Shown: in pieces, positions 27,138 through 37,379 of the stretch
Numbering within the stretch: position 1 is the stretch's first letter
How the letters are laid out: each line of letters begins with the position of its first letter
DNA from: Bacteroidota bacterium
GTDB taxonomy: Bacteria; Bacteroidota; Bacteroidia; Bacteroidales; Prolixibacteraceae
Direction of reading: 5' to 3'
Length of the DNA: 56,365 nt
NCBI GenBank assembly: GCA_023251435.1
Contig: JAHEYU010000035.1
Span: 1-56,365, forward strand
Notes under the pieces: generated by a model
What the model was told of the DNA's origin: nothing
The model's database searches: none
Seen by the model: the letters and a program-made list of their open reading frames with translations, nothing else
Made by a program: the position numbers and the translations under genes

Positions 27138-27347
27138 ATGAAAGCAATAAAAGAAATAGAAGCAAAAATCAGTCAGTTATCTCCGGGGTTAATTGATGAG
27201 TTGGAACATTTTTTAGACTGCTTGATCAACAAAAATAATGTTCATCAACCATCAAAATTAAGACAGAATTGGGCTGGAGGTTTAAAAGATATTAACATGT
27301 CTTCCATCGAATTGCAAAAGAAAGCTTTAAATTGGAGACAAAAATGA
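27138..27347 (+). CDS. DUF2281/VapB-like antitoxin
   Basis: This 69-residue protein begins MKAIKEIEAKISQLSPGLIDELEHFLDCLI. It ends with the family tail, NWAGGLKDINMSSIELQKKALNWR, which matches the usual D/NWAGxLKD...SxELQxKALxWR of DUF2281 antitoxins. It lacks an obvious DNA-binding N-terminus. Its TGA overlaps the ATG of the PIN gene by the ATGA arrangement. It should hold the PIN toxin inactive. Confidence 0.82.
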   Translation: MKAIKEIEAKISQLSPGLIDELEHFLDCLINKNNVHQPSKLRQNWAGGLKDINMSSIELQKKALNWRQK

Positions 27348-27781
27348 GTTACCTGGTTGACACCAATATTTGGCTTGAACGTTTATTAGATCAGGAAAAA
27401 TCTGAAGTTGTTTCTCAATTCCTTGAGAACATCCCATTAAGTGATCTATTCGTCAGTGACTTCACTATTCATTCGATTGGCGTTATTCTTTCCAGATTTA
27501 AAAAATTTGGTGTACTTTCTGAATTTTTGGATGACTTATTTGTAAATGGGCAAATCGGACAACTTTCGCTGAATCCAAATGAATTAATGCAGTTCATTTC
27601 CAATATACAGGAATTCAATCTTGATTTCGATGATGCTTACCAACTTTCTGTTTCTCAAAAATATGACTTAGTTATAGTAACTTTCGATAAAGACTTTAAC
27701 ACAAAGGGCATACGCAAAAATACTCCTGAAGAAATAATTCAGCAGCTGGGAACAACAGACTGGGATTCATTAATTGTATAA
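27344..27781 (+). CDS. PIN-domain toxin (VapC-like)
   Basis: This 145-residue protein opens MSYLVDTNIWLERLL with the first PIN acidic residue, Asp6. Other acidic positions are Asp96/Asp97 (FDDAYQL) and Asp115 (TFDKDF). The position that carries Glu in classical VapC (here about 43, in DFTIHSIGVIL) is His, which seems to be usual for this PIN subgroup. PIN toxins are magnesium-dependent ribonucleases, often cutting tRNA or rRNA. The start is set at the ATGA overlap with the antitoxin rather than four codons earlier. The locus is AT-rich relative to its flanks. Confidence 0.85.
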   Translation: MSYLVDTNIWLERLLDQEKSEVVSQFLENIPLSDLFVSDFTIHSIGVILSRFKKFGVLSEFLDDLFVNGQIGQLSLNPNELMQFISNIQEFNLDFDDAYQLSVSQKYDLVIVTFDKDFNTKGIRKNTPEEIIQQLGTTDWDSLIV

Positions 27782-27834
27782 TGGGACTACAATTCATAAT
27801 TAATTAAATACAAAAAAAAATCAATATCGAAACT

Positions 27835-27853
27835 CTCCTATCTGAAATAGGAG
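27835..27853 (+). terminator. Possible hairpin after the PIN toxin gene
   Basis: CTCCTAT and ATAGGAG pair around a five-base loop. It lacks a T run, so it may be a weak terminator or part of the gcvP leader. Confidence 0.35.
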
Positions 27854-27934
27854 GGGCTAATAAAAATCATTTTAAACGATCCCCAATCTTCGTAAACTTG
27901 CACCCTCAAAACAGAAACAAAAATCTTAAATAAT

Positions 27935-30799
27935 ATGGCAAGCGATAAATTTGTAATGCGCCACATTGGGCCACGCGACCACGAAATTCAGGAAATGCTG
28001 AACGTTCTTGGCGTTTCAACATTGGACGAATTGATGAGTCAGACCGTTCCGGAAAATATCAGGCTGAAACAGCCGTTGAAACTGGAAGACGGATTGACTG
28101 AACGTCAGTATTTTCGCAAGATTCTGGCTTTGGCTGCGCAAAATAAAGTCTATAACACCTACATCGGGATGGGTTATTACGACACCATCACCCCGGCAGT
28201 AATTCTCCGGAATGTGTTGGAAAACCCGGTTTGGTACACCAGCTACACGCCTTACCAGGCCGAAATTTCGCAGGGGCGTTTGGAAGCATTGCTGAATTTT
28301 CAGACGATGGTTTGCGACCTGACTGGCATGGAAATGGCCAATGCAGGCCTGCTCGACGAAGCGACCGCTGCCGCCGAATCGATGGTGATGATGATGAACT
28401 CTCGTTCGAGAGCCAAAGCAAAAGCCAATGCCAACGTGGTTTGGGTTGACGAAAAAGTGTGGCCTCAAACACTGGATGTTTTGATTACACGTGCCAATCC
28501 GTTGGGTATCGAACTGAAAGTGGCTGATTGGAAAAACTTTGAACTGGATGAAAATACCTTTGGCCTAATCGTTCAATACCCCAATTCCGACGGACAAATC
28601 GTCGATTATTCATCGCTGGTAAAAGCTGCCCACGAAAAAGAAGTTTTTGTTTCGGTTGCTGCCGATCTTCTTTGCCTTTCAATTCTGACTCCTCCGGGAG
28701 AATGGGGTGCCGACATCGTTTTTGGAAATTCGCAACGCTTTGGTATCCCGATGGGTTATGGGGGCCCGCACGCTGCATTCTTTGCTTCAAAAGATATTTT
28801 TAAACGAAATATGCCGGGTCGAATCATCGGAGTTTCGAAAGATACACATGGCAAACGCGCGCTCCGCATGGCGCTGCAAACCCGCGAACAGCATATCAAG
28901 CGCGAAAAAGCAACTTCGAATATCTGTACTTCGCAGGCATTGCTGGCCAACATGGCCGGTTTTTACGCCGTGTATCACGGACCGGAGGGGATCACACAAA
29001 TTGCCAACCGCATCCATTGCATTGCGGCTTTGCTCGAAAAGGAAATTACGGCTTTGGGATACCCGCAACTGAACAGCAATTATTTTGATACCATCCGCTT
29101 TGCGTTGCCACGCCACGTAAAACGCGAAGATATTGAATGGCTGTCGCTCGAACTGGAAATGAATTTCCGCTATTTCGAAAATGGAGAAGTAGGTTTAAGT
29201 ATCGACGAAACCACCAATCTCGACGACATCAACTGGATTCTGGAAGTGTTTGCCAAAGCGGCCAATAAACCGCTGGTGAAGATTACCGCTTACCCAAATC
29301 TCTGCACCATTCATCCTGAATTTCTGCGCACTTCGGCCTTTATGCAGCAGGAAGTGTTCAATAAATACCGGTCTGAAACCGAAATGGTTCGCTACATCAA
29401 AAAGCTCGAACACAAAGATATTTCACTCACACATTCCATGATTCCGCTCGGTTCGTGTACCATGAAATTGAATGCGGCGACCGAAATGCTGCCGTTAAGC
29501 TGGATCGAATTTGGCGGTATCCACCCGTTTGTACCGAAAAACCAGGCGCGTGGCTACCATGAAATGATGGAAGAACTGCGCCGCGATTTATCCGAAATCA
29601 CCGGTTTTGCAGATGTCAGCCTTCAGCCAAATTCAGGAGCGGCAGGCGAATATGCCGGATTGATGGTCATTCGCCAATACCACATCAGCAGGGGCGAAGG
29701 ACACCGCGATGTAGCGCTGATTCCATCGTCGGCTCATGGGACCAACCCAGCCAGCGCCGTGATGGCGGGTATGAAAGTAGTGGTTACGCCTTGCGACGAA
29801 CGCGGAAACATTGATGTGGAAGCTTTGCGCCAAAAAGCCGAAGAATTCAAAGATACCTTATCGTGTTTTATGGTAACTTATCCATCCACACACGGAGTTT
29901 ACGAATCTTCGATCACCGAATTGTGCGAGATTATTCATTCGCATGGCGGACAGGTTTACATGGACGGCGCCAACATGAATGCGCAGGTTGGTTTGACCAA
30001 TCCTAGCCGTATTGGAGCCGATGTTTGTCACCTGAATTTGCACAAGACATTCGCCATTCCTCACGGAGGAGGTGGTCCGGGTGTTGGCCCGATTGCCGTT
30101 GCGCCACATCTGGTAGAATTCCTGCCATCGCATCCGGTGATGAACAACGGACATGTGGGGATTACCGCTGTTTCTGCTGGACCGTGGGGAAGCGCTTCGG
30201 TGCTGCCAATTACCTACGGATACATTAAAATGCTGGGTGCCGACGGACTCAAACGTGCTTCTGAAATCGCTATTTTGAATGCAAACTACATTGCCAATGC
30301 TTTAAAAGACAACTACGGAATTTTATATACGGGCGAAAATGGCCGTTGCGCCCACGAAATGATTCTGGAATGCCGCCACCTGAAAGCCGCTTCGGGCATT
30401 ACCGAAGGCGACATTGCTAAACGGTTGATGGATTATGGCTTCCATGCGCCAACACTTTCATTTCCGGTTCACGGAACATTGATGGTTGAACCAACCGAAA
30501 GCGAATCGAAACAGGAACTCGATCGTTTCATTGAAGCGCTGACCGGCATTTTCAACGAAATTCAGGCCGTTGCTTCGGGCGAAATGGACAAGGAAGATAA
30601 TCCGCTGAAAAATGCGCCACATACTTCGGATGTGGTTACTGCCGACGACTGGAATCATTCGTACAGCCGCCAGACAGCAGTTTTTCCATTAGTTTGGCTG
30701 AAGGAAAACAAATACTGGCCGCCAATTGGCCGTGTTGACGATGCCTTTGGCGACCGCAACCTGGTTTGCACCTGCGAACCGATTGAGAGTTACAAATAA
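27935..30799 (+). CDS. gcvP: Glycine dehydrogenase (decarboxylating), P-protein
   Basis: This 954-residue PLP enzyme of the glycine cleavage system decarboxylates glycine and transfers aminomethyl to the H-protein lipoyl group. The two halves of the alpha/beta type are fused. The PLP lysine is Lys704 in HLNLHKTFAIPHGGGGPG. Other signatures are MIPLGSCTMKLNA, SSAHGTNPASAVMAG, and the N-terminal RHIGPRDHEIQEML and YTPYQAEISQGRLE. No gcvT or gcvH is adjacent. Its last about 60 bp are present again, diverged, at 31301-31360. Confidence 0.97.
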   Translation: MASDKFVMRHIGPRDHEIQEMLNVLGVSTLDELMSQTVPENIRLKQPLKLEDGLTERQYFRKILALAAQNKVYNTYIGMGYYDTITPAVILRNVLENPVWYTSYTPYQAEISQGRLEALLNFQTMVCDLTGMEMANAGLLDEATAAAESMVMMMNSRSRAKAKANANVVWVDEKVWPQTLDVLITRANPLGIELKVADWKNFELDENTFGLIVQYPNSDGQIVDYSSLVKAAHEKEVFVSVAADLLCLSILTPPGEWGADIVFGNSQRFGIPMGYGGPHAAFFASKDIFKRNMPGRIIGVSKDTHGKRALRMALQTREQHIKREKATSNICTSQALLANMAGFYAVYHGPEGITQIANRIHCIAALLEKEITALGYPQLNSNYFDTIRFALPRHVKREDIEWLSLELEMNFRYFENGEVGLSIDETTNLDDINWILEVFAKAANKPLVKITAYPNLCTIHPEFLRTSAFMQQEVFNKYRSETEMVRYIKKLEHKDISLTHSMIPLGSCTMKLNAATEMLPLSWIEFGGIHPFVPKNQARGYHEMMEELRRDLSEITGFADVSLQPNSGAAGEYAGLMVIRQYHISRGEGHRDVALIPSSAHGTNPASAVMAGMKVVVTPCDERGNIDVEALRQKAEEFKDTLSCFMVTYPSTHGVYESSITELCEIIHSHGGQVYMDGANMNAQVGLTNPSRIGADVCHLNLHKTFAIPHGGGGPGVGPIAVAPHLVEFLPSHPVMNNGHVGITAVSAGPWGSASVLPITYGYIKMLGADGLKRASEIAILNANYIANALKDNYGILYTGENGRCAHEMILECRHLKAASGITEGDIAKRLMDYGFHAPTLSFPVHGTLMVEPTESESKQELDRFIEALTGIFNEIQAVASGEMDKEDNPLKNAPHTSDVVTADDWNHSYSRQTAVFPLVWLKENKYWPPIGRVDDAFGDRNLVCTCEPIESYK

Positions 30800-30800
30800 G
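30741..30800 (+). repeat. Direct repeat, copy 1 (3' end of gcvP)
   Basis: This is the end of the functional gcvP, encoding DAFGDRNLVCTCEPIESYK and the stop. It matches 31301-31360 at about 51 of 60 positions. Confidence 0.9.
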
Positions 30801-30824
30801 AAAAGAATTCGTTTTTAAAAAGTT

Positions 30825-30861
30825 AATCCTAACAGGTTTCAAAAATCTGTTAGGATTTTTT
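30825..30861 (+). terminator. gcvP terminator
   Basis: AATCCTAACAG pairs with CTGTTAGGATT and is followed by a T run. Confidence 0.88.
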
Positions 30862-30872
30862 ATTAGGATAAA

Positions 30873-30889
30873 GTTGTCAATTTGTCAAC
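30873..30889. promoter_or_regulatory. Near-palindromic operator over the higA -33 element
   Basis: GTTGTCAATTTGTCAAC has the symmetric form GTTG-n-CAA-n-TTG-n-CAAC. HigA-type HTH antitoxins repress their own promoters, so this is a likely binding site. Confidence 0.5.
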
Positions 30890-30902
30890 TCTGCTACCTT
30901 TG
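30874..30902 (+). promoter_or_regulatory. Promoter of the orphan higA
   Basis: TTG (30874-30876) and TACCTTTG (30895-30902) are spaced by 18 bp, a good -33/-7 pair. The ATG lies 42 bp beyond. Confidence 0.65.
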
Positions 30903-30944
30903 CTGCAGGTATATTCACCAAATTTTTGGGAGGGAGAAGAAAAT

Positions 30945-31301
30945 ATGATAACAACAATAATAAAAACAGACGAAGAATACGAAAATGCCCTGACTCGAAT
31001 TGAGGCAATAATGGATGCTAAACCCAATACTCCGGAAGGCGACGAACTCGAATTGCTTAGCTTGCTCGTTGAAAAATATGAGCAGGAAAAATACCCGCTC
31101 CCTGAAGCCGACCCGGTTGATGTAATCCGTTACTACATGGAACAAAGAGGGCTGAAGGCGAAGGATTTGGTAGGTATAATTGGCGACAAGGCCATCGTTT
31201 CAAAAATCATGAACCGGGAGCGGAAACTAAACTTACAAATGGTTCGAAATCTTCATCAAAAGGCTAAAATTCCATACAGTTTATTGATGAACGAGTATTA
31301 A
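30945..31301 (+). CDS. higA: HigA-type HTH antitoxin, no toxin adjacent
   Basis: The protein has 118 residues. The N-terminal half (TDEEYENALTRIEAIMDAKPNTPEGDELELLSLLVEKYE) is the DUF-like lead of HigA antitoxins paired with HigB-type toxins. The C-terminal half is a Cro/C1 HTH (DVIRYYMEQRGLKAKDLVGIIGDKAIVSKIMNRERKLNLQMVRNL). The start at 30945 has a purine-rich GGAGGGAGAAG before it, unusually strong for this phylum. HigB normally precedes HigA, but the 145 bp upstream hold only the gcvP terminator and this promoter. The stop codon abuts a second copy of the gcvP 3' end. Confidence 0.85.
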   Translation: MITTIIKTDEEYENALTRIEAIMDAKPNTPEGDELELLSLLVEKYEQEKYPLPEADPVDVIRYYMEQRGLKAKDLVGIIGDKAIVSKIMNRERKLNLQMVRNLHQKAKIPYSLLMNEY

Positions 31302-31360
31302 TGCCTTTGGCGACCGCAATCAGACTTGCACCTGCGAACCGATTGAAAGCAATAAGTAAG
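31301..31360 (+). pseudogene. Remnant of a second gcvP 3' end
   Basis: The segment encodes NAFGDRNQTCTCEPIESNK and a stop in one frame, matching the gcvP C-terminus except L-V to Q-T and Y to N. Several other differences are synonymous, as expected between orthologues rather than a fresh duplication. It begins at the last base of the higA stop. No further gcvP sequence lies upstream, so it is only a tail. Confidence 0.85.
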
Positions 31361-31638
31361 AAAGATTTTTTTAACCGTTTAAAATTTGGGATTTCTAATC
31401 TTTTTTCATATAATTATTTATAAATAACGTCCTATCTCAATATTAACCATTTGCAGATAGAAATGAGTCTATATTGATAATACTAATAGATCATTTAAAA
31501 GAATTAATTTAAACTTTCTTTTAAACTATCGAACCAACCTGTAAATAATGATGATGACATAACTTGATTGGAAGTGATTCAAAGAACCTTCTGAATTGAT
31601 TTATAGACATTCTCTTCTCTGTGATAATAAAGATTATC

Positions 31639-31752
31639 ATGAAGAAAAAACAACAAAATTCTTTAAGGCGCAAAATTGAAATCGTCGCTTTGATTGCACA
31701 GATTATTCAGTCCATTATTGAGATTGTTCATTTGATTGCATTCTTCTTTTGA
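31639..31752 (+). CDS. Possible 37-residue hydrophobic peptide
   Basis: The peptide begins MKKKQQNSLRRKIEIV, with seven basic residues in the first twelve, followed by a single hydrophobic helix of about 24 residues rich in Ile, and ends AFFF. This basic-then-hydrophobic layout is that of small membrane peptides, including type I toxins. A terminator lies about 107 bp downstream. No convincing promoter or known homologue was recognised, and no antisense RNA can be proved from sequence. Confidence 0.35.
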   Translation: MKKKQQNSLRRKIEIVALIAQIIQSIIEIVHLIAFFF

Positions 31753-31858
31753 AAGTCAACAATGTCGTTATTTCTGATTTTTCCACTTAGCTTTATCAAT
31801 CGGAATCCGCATAATAAGAAAGAGTAGAAAGGTTGAGGAATATGACAGGTTAAGTTTT

Positions 31859-31894
31859 AATCCTGATAGGTTTAAAAACCTGTCAGGATTTTTT
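31859..31894 (+). terminator. Terminator in the accessory island
   Basis: AATCCTGATAGGTTT pairs with AACCTGTCAGGATT and is followed by a T run. The stem wording resembles the gcvP terminator. Confidence 0.85.
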
Positions 31895-32085
31895 ACTTTA
31901 AGAACAGGCAATTTGACTCTTTAGATGATAGACTTTGAATAAGAAAAAGGCTTAATCTTCAAGAGTAATTTTTAGAATGGTTAATAATTATTCTCCGACT
32001 AATATGCATCCTGATTTTCTCTATCTTAGAGGATTGATTAATTGATGTTAATAAATCAAAGGTTTTCTTTTAATAAAAACCCACC

Positions 32086-35000
32086 ATGAAAATTATTAAT
32101 GAAATATTTGATATCTGTAAAATTGGAAATATTGAAAGACTCAAAGAAATTCTATTCATTTTAAAGCAGAATGACACAAAAGTATACATTCCTCTGCCAC
32201 ACGAGTATGATGTAGAAGGGATAAATCCTTTATATTGGGATGAAGATGACTTGCCGGATTGCTCATTGTATAATTTTTACTTGGGATCACCTTTAAATGT
32301 CAAAGACAAATACGGAAATACCCCTCTTGTGTATGCGGCAGAAAATGGATCAAAGGAAATCGTCGAATTACTTATCATGAACAATGCAGAGGTTGATTTA
32401 TCCGGGGCACTTGGTTTTACGCCACTAGCATATGCATTGAAAAATGGGCAAAAAGAAGTAGCCAAAATTCTAATTGAAAATGGTGCAAATATTAATATTG
32501 AGGCACATTACAAAATGCCTTTGATCTATTACGCATTACATAATAGAAACATGGAAGTATTTCATTTCCTTGTTAAAATGGGGGCAGATCTTAATTTTGG
32601 ACCTTCATACTTTTATTTGACCTTACTGGGAAAATCATTAATTGATAAGGATTATGAAACTTGCAAAATGCTAATAAATAAAGGAATAGATGTAAACACT
32701 GAAATTTGTTCGGGAAACACCGCTCTTATTTATGTTTCGCAAATTGGCAATAAAGAAATGGTAGAGCTGCTTATTAATCATGGAGCAGATATTAATAAAA
32801 AGGGGTACAAAGATATGACCCCACTTTGGGGGGCATTGAGCAAGGGACATTTAGACATTGTAGAAATACTTATAATTAAAGGCGCCAACGTAAATTTGAA
32901 AGAGATTAATGGGATATCACCTCTTTCTTTTGCTTCTTGTTCAGGATACAAAACAATGGTTGAATTACTAATTGCTCACAACGCTGATGTAAATATTATT
33001 GACGGAGATGGAATGACTCCACTAGCAAACGCCTCTAAAAGTGGAAATAAAGAAATAGTAGAGATTTTAATTCACTATGGTGCCAATGTGAACTTGCATG
33101 TTGATCCCTGGAAGAGCCCCCTCGCTCTTGCGATTATTGGTGGATTTATACCAATTGTTGAAATATTAATTAATCATGGAGCAAATGTGAATGAAGATGA
33201 TAGTTATTGCTTGAATCTCCTCGAATTAGCTATAAAACAAGACATTAAAGAGATTGTTGAATTGCTAATTATCAATGGCGCTAACGTCAACGATCAGTGT
33301 AGTTACGATAATATGACACCACTTGCTCTTGCGTGTGAGAAAGGATTTATATCAATAGCTGAATTACTAATTACGCATAACGCAGATGTTAACGGGAAAC
33401 TTAAGGATGGAAATTCTCCACTTTGTATCGCATCAAAATCAGGTTTTATTTCAATTGTAGAACTTCTTATAAAGCACAATGCTGATGTTAACGAAACGAC
33501 TGAAGGTATTATGACACCAATTGCTTATGCTTCACAATCAGGCCATACATCAATTGTTGAGTTACTAATTTCTCATGGTGCCGAAGTTGATAAAAAGGAT
33601 AAAAATGGAGTTACCCCTTTATTACTAGCAACAAGAGGTGAATTTATGTCTATAATTGAACTTCTAGTTAGAAGTGGAGCTGATGTAAATATCAAAGATG
33701 TCAAAAGAAAAACTCCAATTGCAATTGCTTCAGAAAAGGGGAATGTACAGATTGTTAAATATCTTATCTCAAAAGGTGCAAATTTCGATAGCGATATCTC
33801 AACTCGCTACTTGCTAATCAAAGAATATCATGAAGTTGTTCTTATGCTGAATTCATTAGGAGCCAATGAAAATGGGCTATTACTTTCAGTATTGAAGAAA
33901 GGAATGAAAGAAACATGGAAAATTGATCAAAACAATCGACCTTACAAGCATTTTGAATGGGAGAAGGGCTACAGGGAGATGACAGAAAAAATATTAGAAA
34001 ATGGGGATGGAGTTGATTTCGTTGACTCTGATGGGTTCTCCCCACTAATTCTTTCACTTCTAAGAGGAAGTAAAGAAATAGCAGAAAAAATTATATCAAA
34101 AGCTGCAAATATAAATGTAATAAGCAAAAATGGAGATACACCTTTGATTATCTGTTCCGATTCTGGTTATACTGAATTAGTAGAAATTCTTATCTCAAAA
34201 GGTACAAACGTTAATATTCAAAACAAATATGGAAAATCTCCTCTCATAGTTGCTTCCCAAAAAGGACATTTGGAAATAGTAAAGATGCTAATTTCAAATG
34301 GTGCCATTATAAACATTCATAATAACATAGGAGAAACTCCACTTATTGTTGCATCTAAAAATGGACACTTAGAAATAGTAAAATTGTTACTTTCCAATTC
34401 TGCAAATCTAAATGCTCAAAACATAAATTTTGAAACATCACTTCTTCTTTCTTTAAAAAACGAACATTCCTATCGATACGACAATCCATCTTATATAACG
34501 GTTGAATTGTCACAAGGACATAAAGATGTGGCTGATTTACTAATTTCAAATGGTGCCGAAGTGAATAATAAAGATAAAAATGGACGTACTGCTCTTATGT
34601 ATGCCTCTGAAAACGGACTTATTAATACATCCTCAATATTAATTTTAAAAGGAGCAAATGTGAACGAGAAAGATAATTTCGGCAATACGGCACTTATGTT
34701 TGGGTCATTTAATGGACATGTTCCAATAGCTGAATTACTTATCTCTTTAAATGTAAATGTAAACCAAAAGAATAAAAATGGGAATACTTCACTGATTTAT
34801 GCATCTAAGAACCGACATGTCGGAATCGCTAAATTATTAATTTTGAATGGAGCTAAAGTGGATCGGAAAAACAAAAAAGACGAGACACCATTGCTTTCCA
34901 GTATAGATGCTGGCTGCTATGAAATAGTCAAGCTTCTTATTGAAAACAGTGCTTCCCTTAATAAAGAGAACTATAATAGTATAAACACATTGTTTTTTGC

Positions 35001-35769
35001 AATACAAAGAGCGAACATAGGCAGAGAATATATTGATATCGTAAAATTATTAGTTTCTAAAGTTGCTAATCTTAACGAGTCTGGGGATAATTCTAGGAAT
35101 TCACTTCACCTCGCATGTGAAATTGGAAATAAAGAGATCGTTGAGTTGCTTATTTCAAACGGTGCTTATGTGAATGCAAAAGGTGAGTATATGATGACAC
35201 CTTTATTTTATGCGCTAAAAAATGGACATAAAGAAATTGCAGAATTTCTAATCTTCAGCGGAGCAGACATTAACGTAAAGGCAACATTTTGTAATGAAAC
35301 ATTATTAAGCTCTTCCTTAAGAGATTGTGATTACGAAGCTATAGAAATGCTTATTTCGAAGGGAGCCAATCTCAATATAATGAATGATAATGGGCTTACA
35401 TCTCTTATGTATGCAACATTAAATGAAAAAAATAATGTCGCAAAATTATTGATTTCAAAGGGAGCTGATCTGAATTTAAGAGATAATTGTCAAAAGTCAG
35501 CACTTCTTTATGCGCTAGAAAAAGGAAACAAAGAGATTGCAAAACTATTGATTGAAAACGGAGCCGAAGTAAATATTAAAGATATTAATGGAAAAACGCC
35601 TCTTTATTTTGCATTAATTAAAAGGAATAAAGAATTAGTTGAATTATTAATTTCAAAAGGAGCTTTTTTAAACCTAGAAGAAGAACCATTTAAATCAATT
35701 ATTAGTTTGGCCGATGCATTTGGAGATAATGAATTAGCTGATTTTATCATGCTGTTTAGCTCCAAATAA
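32086..35769 (+). CDS. Giant ankyrin-repeat protein
   Basis: The protein has 1227 residues. After a lead of about 60 residues (KIINEIFDICKIGNIERLKEIL), it is built of about 33 ankyrin repeats with the form NGxTPLxxAxxxGxxEIVxLLIxxGAxVNxx. An interruption near residues 600-640 (TWKIDQNNRPYKHFEWEKGYREMTEKI) divides it into two solenoids. There is no signal peptide, membrane segment or catalytic domain, so it is predicted cytosolic and protein-binding. Base composition is clearly more AT-rich than flanking genes, with A/T-ending codons, which points to transfer. Ankyrin proteins can be effectors, anti-phage components or scaffolds; none is assignable here. Confidence 0.9.
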   Translation: MKIINEIFDICKIGNIERLKEILFILKQNDTKVYIPLPHEYDVEGINPLYWDEDDLPDCSLYNFYLGSPLNVKDKYGNTPLVYAAENGSKEIVELLIMNNAEVDLSGALGFTPLAYALKNGQKEVAKILIENGANINIEAHYKMPLIYYALHNRNMEVFHFLVKMGADLNFGPSYFYLTLLGKSLIDKDYETCKMLINKGIDVNTEICSGNTALIYVSQIGNKEMVELLINHGADINKKGYKDMTPLWGALSKGHLDIVEILIIKGANVNLKEINGISPLSFASCSGYKTMVELLIAHNADVNIIDGDGMTPLANASKSGNKEIVEILIHYGANVNLHVDPWKSPLALAIIGGFIPIVEILINHGANVNEDDSYCLNLLELAIKQDIKEIVELLIINGANVNDQCSYDNMTPLALACEKGFISIAELLITHNADVNGKLKDGNSPLCIASKSGFISIVELLIKHNADVNETTEGIMTPIAYASQSGHTSIVELLISHGAEVDKKDKNGVTPLLLATRGEFMSIIELLVRSGADVNIKDVKRKTPIAIASEKGNVQIVKYLISKGANFDSDISTRYLLIKEYHEVVLMLNSLGANENGLLLSVLKKGMKETWKIDQNNRPYKHFEWEKGYREMTEKILENGDGVDFVDSDGFSPLILSLLRGSKEIAEKIISKAANINVISKNGDTPLIICSDSGYTELVEILISKGTNVNIQNKYGKSPLIVASQKGHLEIVKMLISNGAIINIHNNIGETPLIVASKNGHLEIVKLLLSNSANLNAQNINFETSLLLSLKNEHSYRYDNPSYITVELSQGHKDVADLLISNGAEVNNKDKNGRTALMYASENGLINTSSILILKGANVNEKDNFGNTALMFGSFNGHVPIAELLISLNVNVNQKNKNGNTSLIYASKNRHVGIAKLLILNGAKVDRKNKKDETPLLSSIDAGCYEIVKLLIENSASLNKENYNSINTLFFAIQRANIGREYIDIVKLLVSKVANLNESGDNSRNSLHLACEIGNKEIVELLISNGAYVNAKGEYMMTPLFYALKNGHKEIAEFLIFSGADINVKATFCNETLLSSSLRDCDYEAIEMLISKGANLNIMNDNGLTSLMYATLNEKNNVAKLLISKGADLNLRDNCQKSALLYALEKGNKEIAKLLIENGAEVNIKDINGKTPLYFALIKRNKELVELLISKGAFLNLEEEPFKSIISLADAFGDNELADFIMLFSSK

Positions 35770-36020
35770 TCACTATATGATAATATTTAATAATGCGTAT
35801 CCGAATTACATAGGTGAATTTTAGTAGCATCTGCCATTTTAAATTCAACCCGTTCCTGGTTGGCTTTACTCCATGTTTCCTTTGCCTCCAGCGGTGCCGG
35901 GGGATAGTAAACTCCTTGGGAGTTACAAAACCGTAAAACTTGTATGGTATCAATGTTTAAACCTGACAGGTGGGGTGTGAATCATGATGATGAGTGGTTG
36001 TTTTTTTATTAGTTTTTGAC

Positions 36021-36080
36021 GGTCTTCCAGACGCTGACAGGTCGAGCCCCTATTGGAAAACCTGTCAGCGTCCGAAGGCC
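36021..36080. repeat. Large hairpin with GACGCTGACAGGT arms
   Basis: GACGCTGACAGGT (36030-36042) is perfectly complementary to ACCTGTCAGCGTC (36060-36072). Flanking GGTCTTCC/GAAGGCC lengthens the stem to over 20 bp. No T run follows, so it looks like a REP-type element or island border rather than a terminator. CTGACAGG words recur at about 35962 and 36081. Confidence 0.6.
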
Positions 36081-36133
36081 CTGACAGCGTTTTGGGACGA
36101 ACTAATCTTACCCTTTGGTGTTTTCTGGGTATT

Positions 36134-36167
36134 AAAAAGTCCGAAGTTTAATGCTTCGGACTTTTTA
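36134..36167. terminator. Bidirectional terminator
   Basis: AAAAAGTCCGAAG and CTTCGGACTTTTT are perfect complements around a seven-base loop. It separates the island from the minus-strand lipoprotein gene. Confidence 0.88.
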
Positions 36168-36169
36168 GT

Positions 36170-36397
36170 TTATCTTCTTTTATTGTATTTTTTCTTTGTT
36201 TGCCCCGGTGCGTAGTTTTTAGCACTTTTTTCTCCGGTCAGTTTTTTCATTTGTCCGGGAGGTTTTTTGCCTGCCGGTCTGCTTTCAATAATTACTCCTT
36301 TTGGATGCCTTAATTTTTGGTACGATTTGCACCCTGTCCCGAAGAATACGAATACTGCGAATAGAAGAATTATAATTAAATAGTTTCTTGTTCTCAT
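36170..36397 (-). CDS. Small lipoprotein with PPGQ-K motif
   Basis: This 75-residue protein has a hydrophobic signal and lipobox FGTGC, giving a lipidated Cys23. The mature part is very basic and carries KKPPGQMKKLTGEKSAKNYAPGQTKKK. This repeated PPGQ/APGQ-K pattern is seen in a small Bacteroidota family sometimes labelled quinol oxidase subunit 4, a name with little support. Its function is unknown. A TACATTTG -7 box lies about 54 bp upstream on its strand. Confidence 0.75.
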   Translation of the reverse strand: MRTRNYLIIILLFAVFVFFGTGCKSYQKLRHPKGVIIESRPAGKKPPGQMKKLTGEKSAKNYAPGQTKKKYNKRR

Positions 36398-36450
36398 TTT
36401 TATGGGGTGTTATTTTTGTTTGATCTATTTTATTTTCAAAATTGTTTGGT

Positions 36451-36458
36451 CAAATGTA
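36451..36458 (-). promoter_or_regulatory. -7 element of the small lipoprotein gene
   Basis: On the minus strand this reads TACATTTG, a perfect TAnnTTTG. No clear -33 partner was found. Confidence 0.4.
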
Positions 36459-36531
36459 ACAGATTTGCCTGCGTAAAAATAACATTTGCCCGTTACTTAT
36501 TTAAAGTTGGTTTTGTTTCTTCCGCATAAGA

Positions 36532-36561
36532 TTGCCTTTTGAAGTCAATTTTTTACTTTTG
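36532..36561 (+). promoter_or_regulatory. Promoter of ispE
   Basis: TTG (36532-36534) and TACTTTTG (36554-36561) are spaced by 19 bp. The ispE ATG begins six bases after the -7 box, so transcription probably starts at or next to the start codon. Confidence 0.6.
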
Positions 36562-36566
36562 CAGTC

Positions 36567-37379
36567 ATGGTCAGATTCCCAAATGCCAAGATAAATATAG
36601 GTTTATATATTACCGAAAAACGATCGGATGGTTTCCATAACCTCGAGACCGTTTTCTTCCCGGTTGACTGGTGCGATGCCCTGGAGATTGCCGATGCCGG
36701 TGAAGTTCAGTTTTCGTCGAGTGGCATTCTGGTTTCGGGCGATGCGGAATCGAATCTGGTGATGAAAGCGTATCGGATGCTTCAAAATGAATTCAGCTTA
36801 CCAGCTTTAAAAATCCATTTGCACAAACAAATTCCTTTTGGCGCCGGACTTGGCGGAGGCTCTTCCGATGGTGCTTTTATGCTTTCGCTATTGAATCATC
36901 ACTTTAATCTGAACATTTCAGGAGAGGATTTGGAGCAATATGCTGCCCGACTGGGAAGTGATTGTCCGTTTTTTATTCGCAATAAACCGGTTTTTGCTTC
37001 AGGAAGAGGCGAAATTATGGAACCATTGCAACTTTCTCTTAACAGTTGGTTCATATTGCTGGTAAAACCTCCGGTCGAAGTTTCGACAGCAAAAGCATTT
37101 CAGTTGGTGGTTCCGGCGAAACCGGCTATTTCGCTGAAAGATTTGATTCAACTTCCTGTTCAGGAATGGAAAGATTGTGTGGTAAATCAGTTCGAATCGT
37201 CTGTTTTTCAGCAGTATCCGGAGGTTGGTAGATTGAAGCAGGCGATGTACGATTTGGGAGCCTCTTATGCTTCAATGTCGGGTAGCGGATCGTGTGTTTT
37301 TGGTCTTTTTAAGGAACTTCCCAACAGGATTGAAAACCTGTTTCCCGCACCATTCTTAACATTCAGTCAAGAATTGTAA
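36567..37379 (+). CDS. ispE: 4-diphosphocytidyl-2-C-methyl-D-erythritol kinase
   Basis: This 270-residue GHMP kinase phosphorylates CDP-methylerythritol in the MEP isoprenoid pathway. The ATP loop is PFGAGLGGGSSDGA (about 90-103). The substrate lysine lies in NAKINIGLYI (Lys8), and the catalytic Asp in RLGSDCPFFI (about 132). GHMP motif 3 is MSGSGSCVFGLF near the C-terminus. It starts at the first ATG, immediately after its promoter. An AT-rich hairpin follows the stop. Presence of ispE means this organism uses the MEP route. Confidence 0.95.
   Translation: MVRFPNAKINIGLYITEKRSDGFHNLETVFFPVDWCDALEIADAGEVQFSSSGILVSGDAESNLVMKAYRMLQNEFSLPALKIHLHKQIPFGAGLGGGSSDGAFMLSLLNHHFNLNISGEDLEQYAARLGSDCPFFIRNKPVFASGRGEIMEPLQLSLNSWFILLVKPPVEVSTAKAFQLVVPAKPAISLKDLIQLPVQEWKDCVVNQFESSVFQQYPEVGRLKQAMYDLGASYASMSGSGSCVFGLFKELPNRIENLFPAPFLTFSQEL

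What the first reader, a model, noticed from the sequence alone, without database searches (positions are those of the whole stretch)
30741..31360. Orphan higA lies between the real gcvP 3' end and a diverged second copy of it
The last 60 bp of gcvP reappear immediately after the higA stop codon at about 85% identity. The copy is still in frame (AFGDRN..CTCEPIES.K-stop) and differs by several synonymous changes plus L-V to Q-T and Y to N. That is orthologue-like divergence, not a fresh duplication. The simplest reading is that a roughly 560-bp unit carrying a foreign gcvP end, its terminator and higA entered at the 3' end of gcvP and displaced the native end downstream. This resembles how islands restore a target gene's end, but without an integrase and with a protein-coding target.
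Basis: partly seen in the sequence, partly recalled or inferred. Interest (0 to 1): 0.78.

Follow-up and report, generated by a model that had tools for sequence, protein, structure and literature searches.

The report
Orphan antitoxin inserted behind gcvP
A toxin-antitoxin gene pair appears to have slipped in behind a bacterium's glycine-breakdown gene, bringing that gene a new ending and leaving a second, stranded copy of the ending; the toxin was later lost and only its antidote gene remains, apparently still kept intact by selection.

Summary
Confirmed: 59 bp of the gcvP 3' end (30741-30799) recur at 31301-31359, starting inside the higA stop codon (50 of 59 identical). Nine of 23 genomes of the genus carry this higA; the eight that could be named are MAGs, mostly Prolixibacteraceae or unplaced Bacteroidota. 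Five have it behind gcvP: G021 still has the full higB-higA pair, while G000 (this window), G017, G018 and G003 lack higB. The higA-stop/tail junction of the window recurs in G021 and, away from gcvP, in G006, so the scrap can also travel with higBA. Right-hand junctions differ between lineages, none of the tyrosine-integrase rows listed lies near, and no second long gcvP frame was seen: I favour homology-anchored, illegitimate recombination over site-specific integration or decayed duplication. The orphan HigA keeps its operator site and shows dN/dS of 0.03-0.07. Among 21 genus genomes read behind gcvP, only higA inserts carry the scrap. A new variant of known gene-displacement events; moderate interest.

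The parts
27935..30799 (+). gcvP, glycine dehydrogenase; gene in use, with the usual ESYK end
   Evidence: TIGR00461 and PF02347
30741..30799 (+). upstream gcvP tail (the one in use)
   Evidence: sequence; 50 of 59 identical to the downstream copy
30825..30861 (+). T1 hairpin followed by a T run, terminator-like; variant of a palindrome dispersed in the genus
30873..30889 (+). palindromic operator-like site GTTGTCA-N3-TGTCAAC; found at 0-2 mismatches before the operon in all nine higA loci compared
   Evidence: only such site in the window at 2 or fewer mismatches
30895..30902 (+). TACCTTTG, -7 box of the Bacteroidota type (TAnnTTTG, consensus recalled)
   Evidence: sequence
30945..31301 (+). 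orphan higA antitoxin gene, 118 aa; higB missing between promoter and higA
31301..31359 (+). downstream stranded gcvP tail; its first base is the last base of the higA stop codon
31857..31895 (+). second T1 hairpin, direct repeat of the one behind gcvP
32086..35769 (+). ankyrin-repeat gene (1227 aa), further insert between the stranded tail and the native neighbour of gcvP
   Evidence: Ank_2 E=8.2e-193; 31355-33000 matched other genus genomes only at the T1 hairpin
36134..36262 (.). start of the native gcvP neighbour, which abuts the gcvP stop codon in G019
   Evidence: blastn to G019, G017, G018, G009

Best explanation
A type II higB-higA toxin-antitoxin module entered behind gcvP on a piece of related DNA that carried a gcvP 3' end, its terminator and the module. 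Homology in gcvP anchored the left side; the right side, at or just past the higA stop codon, joined illegitimately to a point inside the recipient's own gcvP tail. gcvP thus received a complete new end and the module, and its old end was pushed downstream as a non-coding scrap of about 20 to 104 bp. Later higB was deleted between promoter and higA, and higA was kept as a probably autoregulated solitary antitoxin. Shown: the duplication, the displaced native end in G017/G018, intact higBA behind gcvP in G021, absence of higB here, purifying selection on higA. Inferred: the recombination route (homology-facilitated illegitimate recombination), that the window lineage went through the same steps as G017/G018, and that HigA still binds its operator or neutralises HigB.
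For: Empty site in G019, where gcvP abuts the native neighbour; the same neighbour follows the second tail in G017/G018. G017 second tail closest to G009 gcvP (93/104, next 89); G017 first tail closest to G020 (97/104). G021 has gcvP-T1-higB-higA-tail remnant; HigB is PF09907, E=9.8e-28. Right junctions differ: a shared ATGC point in G000/G006/G021, 104 bp in G017, about 72-86 bp in G018. Of 150 integrase rows listed for 12 genomes none is on the gcvP contig, except in closed G001 where the nearest is about 154 kb off. higA dS G017-G018 is 0.105 against 0.745 for gcvP; dN/dS among the three related orphans 0.026-0.070. Operator-like site in 9 of 9 loci. Same topology described for T6SS effector-immunity insertions (passages of PMC5361080).
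Against: The higA/tail junction is shared by G000, G021 and by G006 away from gcvP, so at least one tail moved with the module and is not a fresh displacement. In the window no sequence behind the second tail matches the native neighbour until 36134, and 31355-33000 has no genus homologue besides T1, so displacement of the native end is not directly shown here. The G017 first tail is also 94/104 identical to G009, so its foreign origin rests on few bases. higA dS G000-G017 (0.418) is close to gcvP dS (0.468), so transfer is not needed for that pair. The leaders of G017 and G018 are 81% identical while higA is 97%, so higA may have been exchanged apart from its flank. gcvP is mosaic across the genus and the left crossover could not be mapped. 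G003 has higA behind gcvP and no second tail. Only PF00589 integrases were sought, in 12 genomes, with 16 of 166 rows unlisted.
Confidence: 0.6

Rival explanations
1. Remnant of an integrative element: a recombinase integrated an island at an attachment site in the gcvP tail, restoring the gene end as islands do at tRNA genes or icd (recalled); everything but the addiction module was later deleted.
For: Gene end is complete; the same higA/tail junction is seen in G000, G021 and G006; the stretch behind gcvP holds inserts of 0.6-5.3 kb in 9 of the 10 genomes in which the native neighbour was located.
Against: Tail copies begin at three different points of gcvP. None of the 150 listed PF00589 rows in 12 genomes is on the gcvP contig, except in closed G001 at about 154 kb (16 rows unlisted; serine recombinases not sought). 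Inserts without higA carry no tail copy above shuffled controls.
Confidence: 0.13
2. The tail is a portable homology arm: a cassette of terminator-higBA-gcvP tail (possibly circular) enters any gcvP by homologous recombination through its own gcvP tail, without needing shared downstream sequence.
For: The module carries tail plus T1 even away from gcvP in G006; the junction is shared by G000, G006, G021, with a faint trace in G002; sequences behind gcvP differ among most of the 12 relatives printed, so gcvP itself would be the common right arm.
Against: 59 bp is short for homologous recombination; G017, G018 and G003 do not have that junction; no circular form or excised state was seen; chimaeric second tails cannot be tested on so few bases.
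Confidence: 0.2
3. Decay of a tandem duplication of gcvP with higA caught between.
For: Two in-frame tails in tandem.
Against: Second tails in the genus are about 20-104 bp and none lies in a long gcvP frame. The second tail in G017 is nearer another species than its own gcvP, and G006 has the tail with higBA away from gcvP.
Confidence: 0.04
4. Assembly artefact of metagenome-assembled genomes.
For: The eight higA-bearing relatives that could be named are MAGs.
Against: The same junction occurs in three genomes of the genus on separate contigs, and tail copies in five of nine higA loci.
Confidence: 0.03

Closest known systems
T6SS effector-immunity displacement arrays and Rhs orphan tips (Vibrio cholerae; PMC5361080, passages seen)
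   Same: New module with a conserved upstream anchor is inserted, the old 3' end of the target gene is shifted downstream, and a protective gene survives without its toxin; homology-facilitated illegitimate recombination is proposed there.
   Different: There the target gene is the toxin itself; here it is an unrelated housekeeping enzyme whose end is complete, and the surviving antitoxin belonged to the incoming module.
Type II HigB-HigA toxin-antitoxin modules
   Same: HigB of relatives is PF09907; HigA resembles HigA chains 5ycl and 5ifg, E about 2e-5; toxin-first gene order in relatives; palindromic operator-like site.
   Different: In the window the toxin gene is gone and higA abuts a stranded gcvP tail.
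PD-Lambda-2 anti-phage system (PMC9519451, passages seen)
   Same: HigB of G021 matches PD-Lambda-2_A (1.3e-33), HigA matches the N-terminal part of PD-Lambda-2_B (1.6e-36).
   Different: HigA here is 118 aa and covers positions 4-120 of 402, so the peptidase domain is absent.
Genomic islands or prophages that restore the 3' end of a protein-coding target (e14 or P21 at icd; recalled, no paper read)
   Same: Target gene end duplicated and the gene left complete.
   Different: No integrase listed near, no constant junction in the genus, very small insert.

Membership tests
HigBA type II toxin-antitoxin | RelE-like HigB toxin encoded upstream of HigA | tested here: not met
   Absent in the window; met in relatives G021, G006, G002, G009, so the window holds a remnant of such a module, not a module.
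HigBA type II toxin-antitoxin | Antitoxin of the HigA family | tested here: met
   Similar to HigA chains 5ycl_A and 5ifg_B, E about 2e-5; but no Pfam family at E up to 1 and no NCBIfam at 1e-3.
HigBA type II toxin-antitoxin | Toxicity and neutralisation; autorepression | not testable with these tools
   Only the shared operator-like site was seen.
PD-Lambda-2 defence system | HigB-like A, Xre-peptidase B, third component C | tested here: not met
   HigA covers 4-120 of the 402-position B profile, so B is not of that build; component C was not searched for as such.
Site-specific integrative element | Integrase gene in or next to the insert | tested here: inconclusive
   All 10 PF00589 rows of G000 are listed and none is on the window's contig; in 12 genomes 150 of 166 rows are listed, none near gcvP. 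Serine recombinases not sought.
Site-specific integrative element | Constant crossover point | tested here: inconclusive
   One point shared by G000, G006, G021, other points in G017 and G018.
Homology-facilitated illegitimate recombination | One homologous side, one illegitimate variable side | tested here: inconclusive
   Variable right side shown; the left crossover in gcvP could not be mapped because gcvP is mosaic.

The most novel reading that the evidence does not exclude
The duplicated gcvP tail is a functional part of a minimal integrase-free mobile cassette: a toxin-antitoxin module that carries the end of a conserved housekeeping gene as its own landing strip, so it can enter that gene in any related species without harming it.
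Probability: 0.2. Interest if true: 0.7.

Novelty: new variant of a known kind. Interest (0 to 1): 0.42.

Why it matters
It catches, across several species, steps by which a toxin-antitoxin module can lodge behind a core metabolic gene without breaking it, and then lose its toxin while the antidote gene stays under selection. If the tail proves to be a portable homology arm, small gene modules could spread between species without any recombinase, which would help explain how such modules scatter through chromosomes.

Tried and rejected
Tandem duplication: in 140 family genomes searched with the last 34 residues of gcvP, no second match lies in a frame longer than 62 aa among the six genomes with a second match below E=0.001; a gcvP copy lacking its tail would not have been seen. 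gcvP tails elsewhere: of 128 genomes drawn from the order, 105 matched at E up to 0.01 and only G000 had a second match. Phage or plasmid carriage: no relative in viral contigs; 8 phage and 499 plasmid records match HigA, all below 60% identity. Cognate toxin elsewhere in G000: only a decayed HigB fragment on C103. Tail behind more distant higA genes: of the 30 higA loci printed, none outside the nine of the genus clade shows one in the 70 bases printed. Mapping the left crossover by sliding identity failed because gcvP is mosaic in the genus. The 110-bp repeat left of the G006 copy lies between genes in the three stretches printed, judged by eye from ORF starts without a library search. The tail copy in G123 (another genus) sits before a homoserine dehydrogenase gene (named by eye), which was not beside gcvP in the fetched stretches of relatives, so its native state is unresolved. 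Rfam at E up to 0.1 over 27500-36600 gave one Thr_leader match below its gathering score. Paper searches: one search returned nothing; some searches were seen as listings only, apart from the passages of PMC5361080 and PMC9519451.
Full report
WHAT IS THERE. gcvP (27935-30799) ends normally. About 26 to 100 bases later follow a hairpin with a T run (T1, 30825-30861), a palindromic site GTTGTCA-N3-TGTCAAC (30873) and a TAnnTTTG promoter box (30895; consensus recalled), then higA (30945-31301). A 59-bp copy of the gcvP end starts on the last base of the higA stop codon and runs to 31359. The copy is 50 of 59 identical, in frame, and far above chance. No further copy was found in the window's genome (G000, 5.7 Mb).

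RELATIVES. The genus has 23 held genomes. A higA at least 80% identical in protein occurs in 9 of 23. Five lie behind gcvP: G000, G003, G017, G018, G021. Four lie elsewhere: G002, G006, G009, G019. G021, G006, G002 and G009 have higB before higA; HigB is PF09907, E=9.8e-28. G000, G017 and G018 lack higB with alignable leaders, G003 lacks it with a leader that seems to hold the last higB codons, and G019 lacks it at another locus: at least three losses by my reading. In G000 the only HigB match is a decayed fragment on C103; in G018 there is none. G003, G017 and G019 have other, more distant HigB genes (39-49% identical).

THE TAIL COPIES. A copy follows higA in G000 (59 bp), G017 (104 bp), G018 (about 72-86 bp), G006 (59 bp, at the locus away from gcvP) and G021 (about 20 bp). 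G002 shows a faint trace (2 mismatches to the junction pattern, a level also reached three times elsewhere in the same search). In the family, 129 of 140 genomes matched the last 34 residues of gcvP at E up to 0.5; a second match below 0.001 exists in six: G000, G006, G017, G018 (all beside higA), G123 and G117 of another genus. In a sample of the order, 105 of 128 matched at E up to 0.01 and only G000 had a second match. Among 21 genus genomes whose sequence behind gcvP was read, a tail copy above shuffled controls was found in G000, G017, G018 and G021 only; G005 is cut by a contig end and G022 has no gcvP tail match.

WHICH TAIL IS NATIVE. In G019 gcvP is followed at once by a hairpin and the sequence I call the native neighbour. 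In G017 and G018 that sequence follows the second tail. The second tail of G017 is closest to gcvP of its relative G009 (93 of 104, next best 89) and only 87 of 104 to its own first tail; its first tail is closest to G020 (97 of 104), with G009 at 94. So in G017 and G018 the downstream tail is the displaced native end and the upstream end came in; the first part rests on flanks, the second on few bases. Against the genus consensus the G017 copy has no amino-acid-changing difference, the G000, G018 and G006 copies have 4, 4 and 5 nt; of 21 tails in use 13 have none, seven 1-3 and one (G015) 4. This fits G017 as the youngest event. In G000 the native neighbour lies at 36134, behind the tail copy, a second T1 and an ankyrin gene, so the window itself does not show what followed the tail originally.

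A HOT SPOT. The native neighbour was located in 10 genomes and is displaced in nine of them, by 0.6 to 5.3 kb; I did not locate it in the other 11, within the stretches held. T1 or another hairpin stands behind gcvP in most of the 12 relatives printed; T1 in strict form occurs in 19 of 23 genomes (the window's own copies are variants and not counted).

THE UNLINKED COPY. In G006 higB-higA-tail-T1 sits between a sprA-like and a TonB-receptor-like gene (names by eye, recalled); G008 has about 25 bp at that place. A gcvP tail there most simply came from a gcvP locus. The junction is the same as in G000 and G021. So the tail travelled with the module at least once.

SELECTION AND TRANSFER. Among the three related orphans dN/dS is 0.026-0.070 (NG86). 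higA dS between G017 and G018 is 0.105 against 0.745 for gcvP; G000-G018 0.348 against 0.877; G000-G017 0.418 against 0.468, so only the first two pairs speak for transfer. The leaders of G017 and G018 are 81% identical against 97% for higA, so higA may have been exchanged apart from its flank. The operator-like site occurs at 0-2 mismatches in 9 of 9 loci; the exact TAnnTTTG box in six, with one-base variants in G018, G009 and G019. HigA is therefore likely a working solitary antitoxin or regulator; this is inference.

MECHANISM. The topology (anchor in a shared gene, new gene end plus module, old gene end pushed back) equals the model given for T6SS effector-immunity arrays and Rhs tips (passages of PMC5361080). 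Variable right junctions fit illegitimate joining; the shared junction in three lineages fits descent or co-transfer. Of 166 PF00589 matches in 12 genomes 150 were listed; none is on the gcvP contig except in closed G001, about 154 kb away; all 10 of G000 are listed and none is on the window's contig. The alternative that the tail is a portable homology arm is kept as the most novel reading.

LIMITS. All inference is from assembled genomes, many of them MAGs; tails are short; gcvP is mosaic; no strain-level comparison of the window species was possible. I saw no paper on higA behind gcvP in the listings (7 of 7, 12 of 435 and 12 of 29 papers listed), which is weak evidence of absence.

Noticed in passing
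window 27138-27781: A DUF2281 gene and a PIN-domain gene stand directly upstream of gcvP, so gcvP is flanked by toxin-antitoxin-type genes on both sides.
   Followed up: no
window 30825-30861 and 31857-31895: CCTGACAGG...CCTGTCAGG hairpins are dispersed through the genus (strict form 0-10 per genome in 23 genomes); terminator or REP-like element.
   Followed up: partly
window 32086-35769: A 1227-aa ankyrin-repeat gene lies between the stranded tail and the native gcvP neighbour.
   Followed up: partly
L082 8008-8190 (G123) and L084 near 460-540 (G117): Two genomes of another genus carry separate gcvP tails (61 codons, and a decayed 25 codons); no higA was noted beside them.
   Followed up: partly
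L006 about 930-1040 (G006): A roughly 110-bp repeat left of the unlinked higBA copy occurs many times in the genus, with several rows in G021.
   Followed up: partly
G000 C103 10032-10139 (L157): Decayed HigB fragment, with what looks by eye like a helix-turn-helix remnant after it.
   Followed up: partly
L037 and L049 (G003, G004): Behind higA in G003 and behind gcvP in G004 lies the same block (78% over 532 bp), so G004 serves as an empty counterpart of G003.
   Followed up: partly
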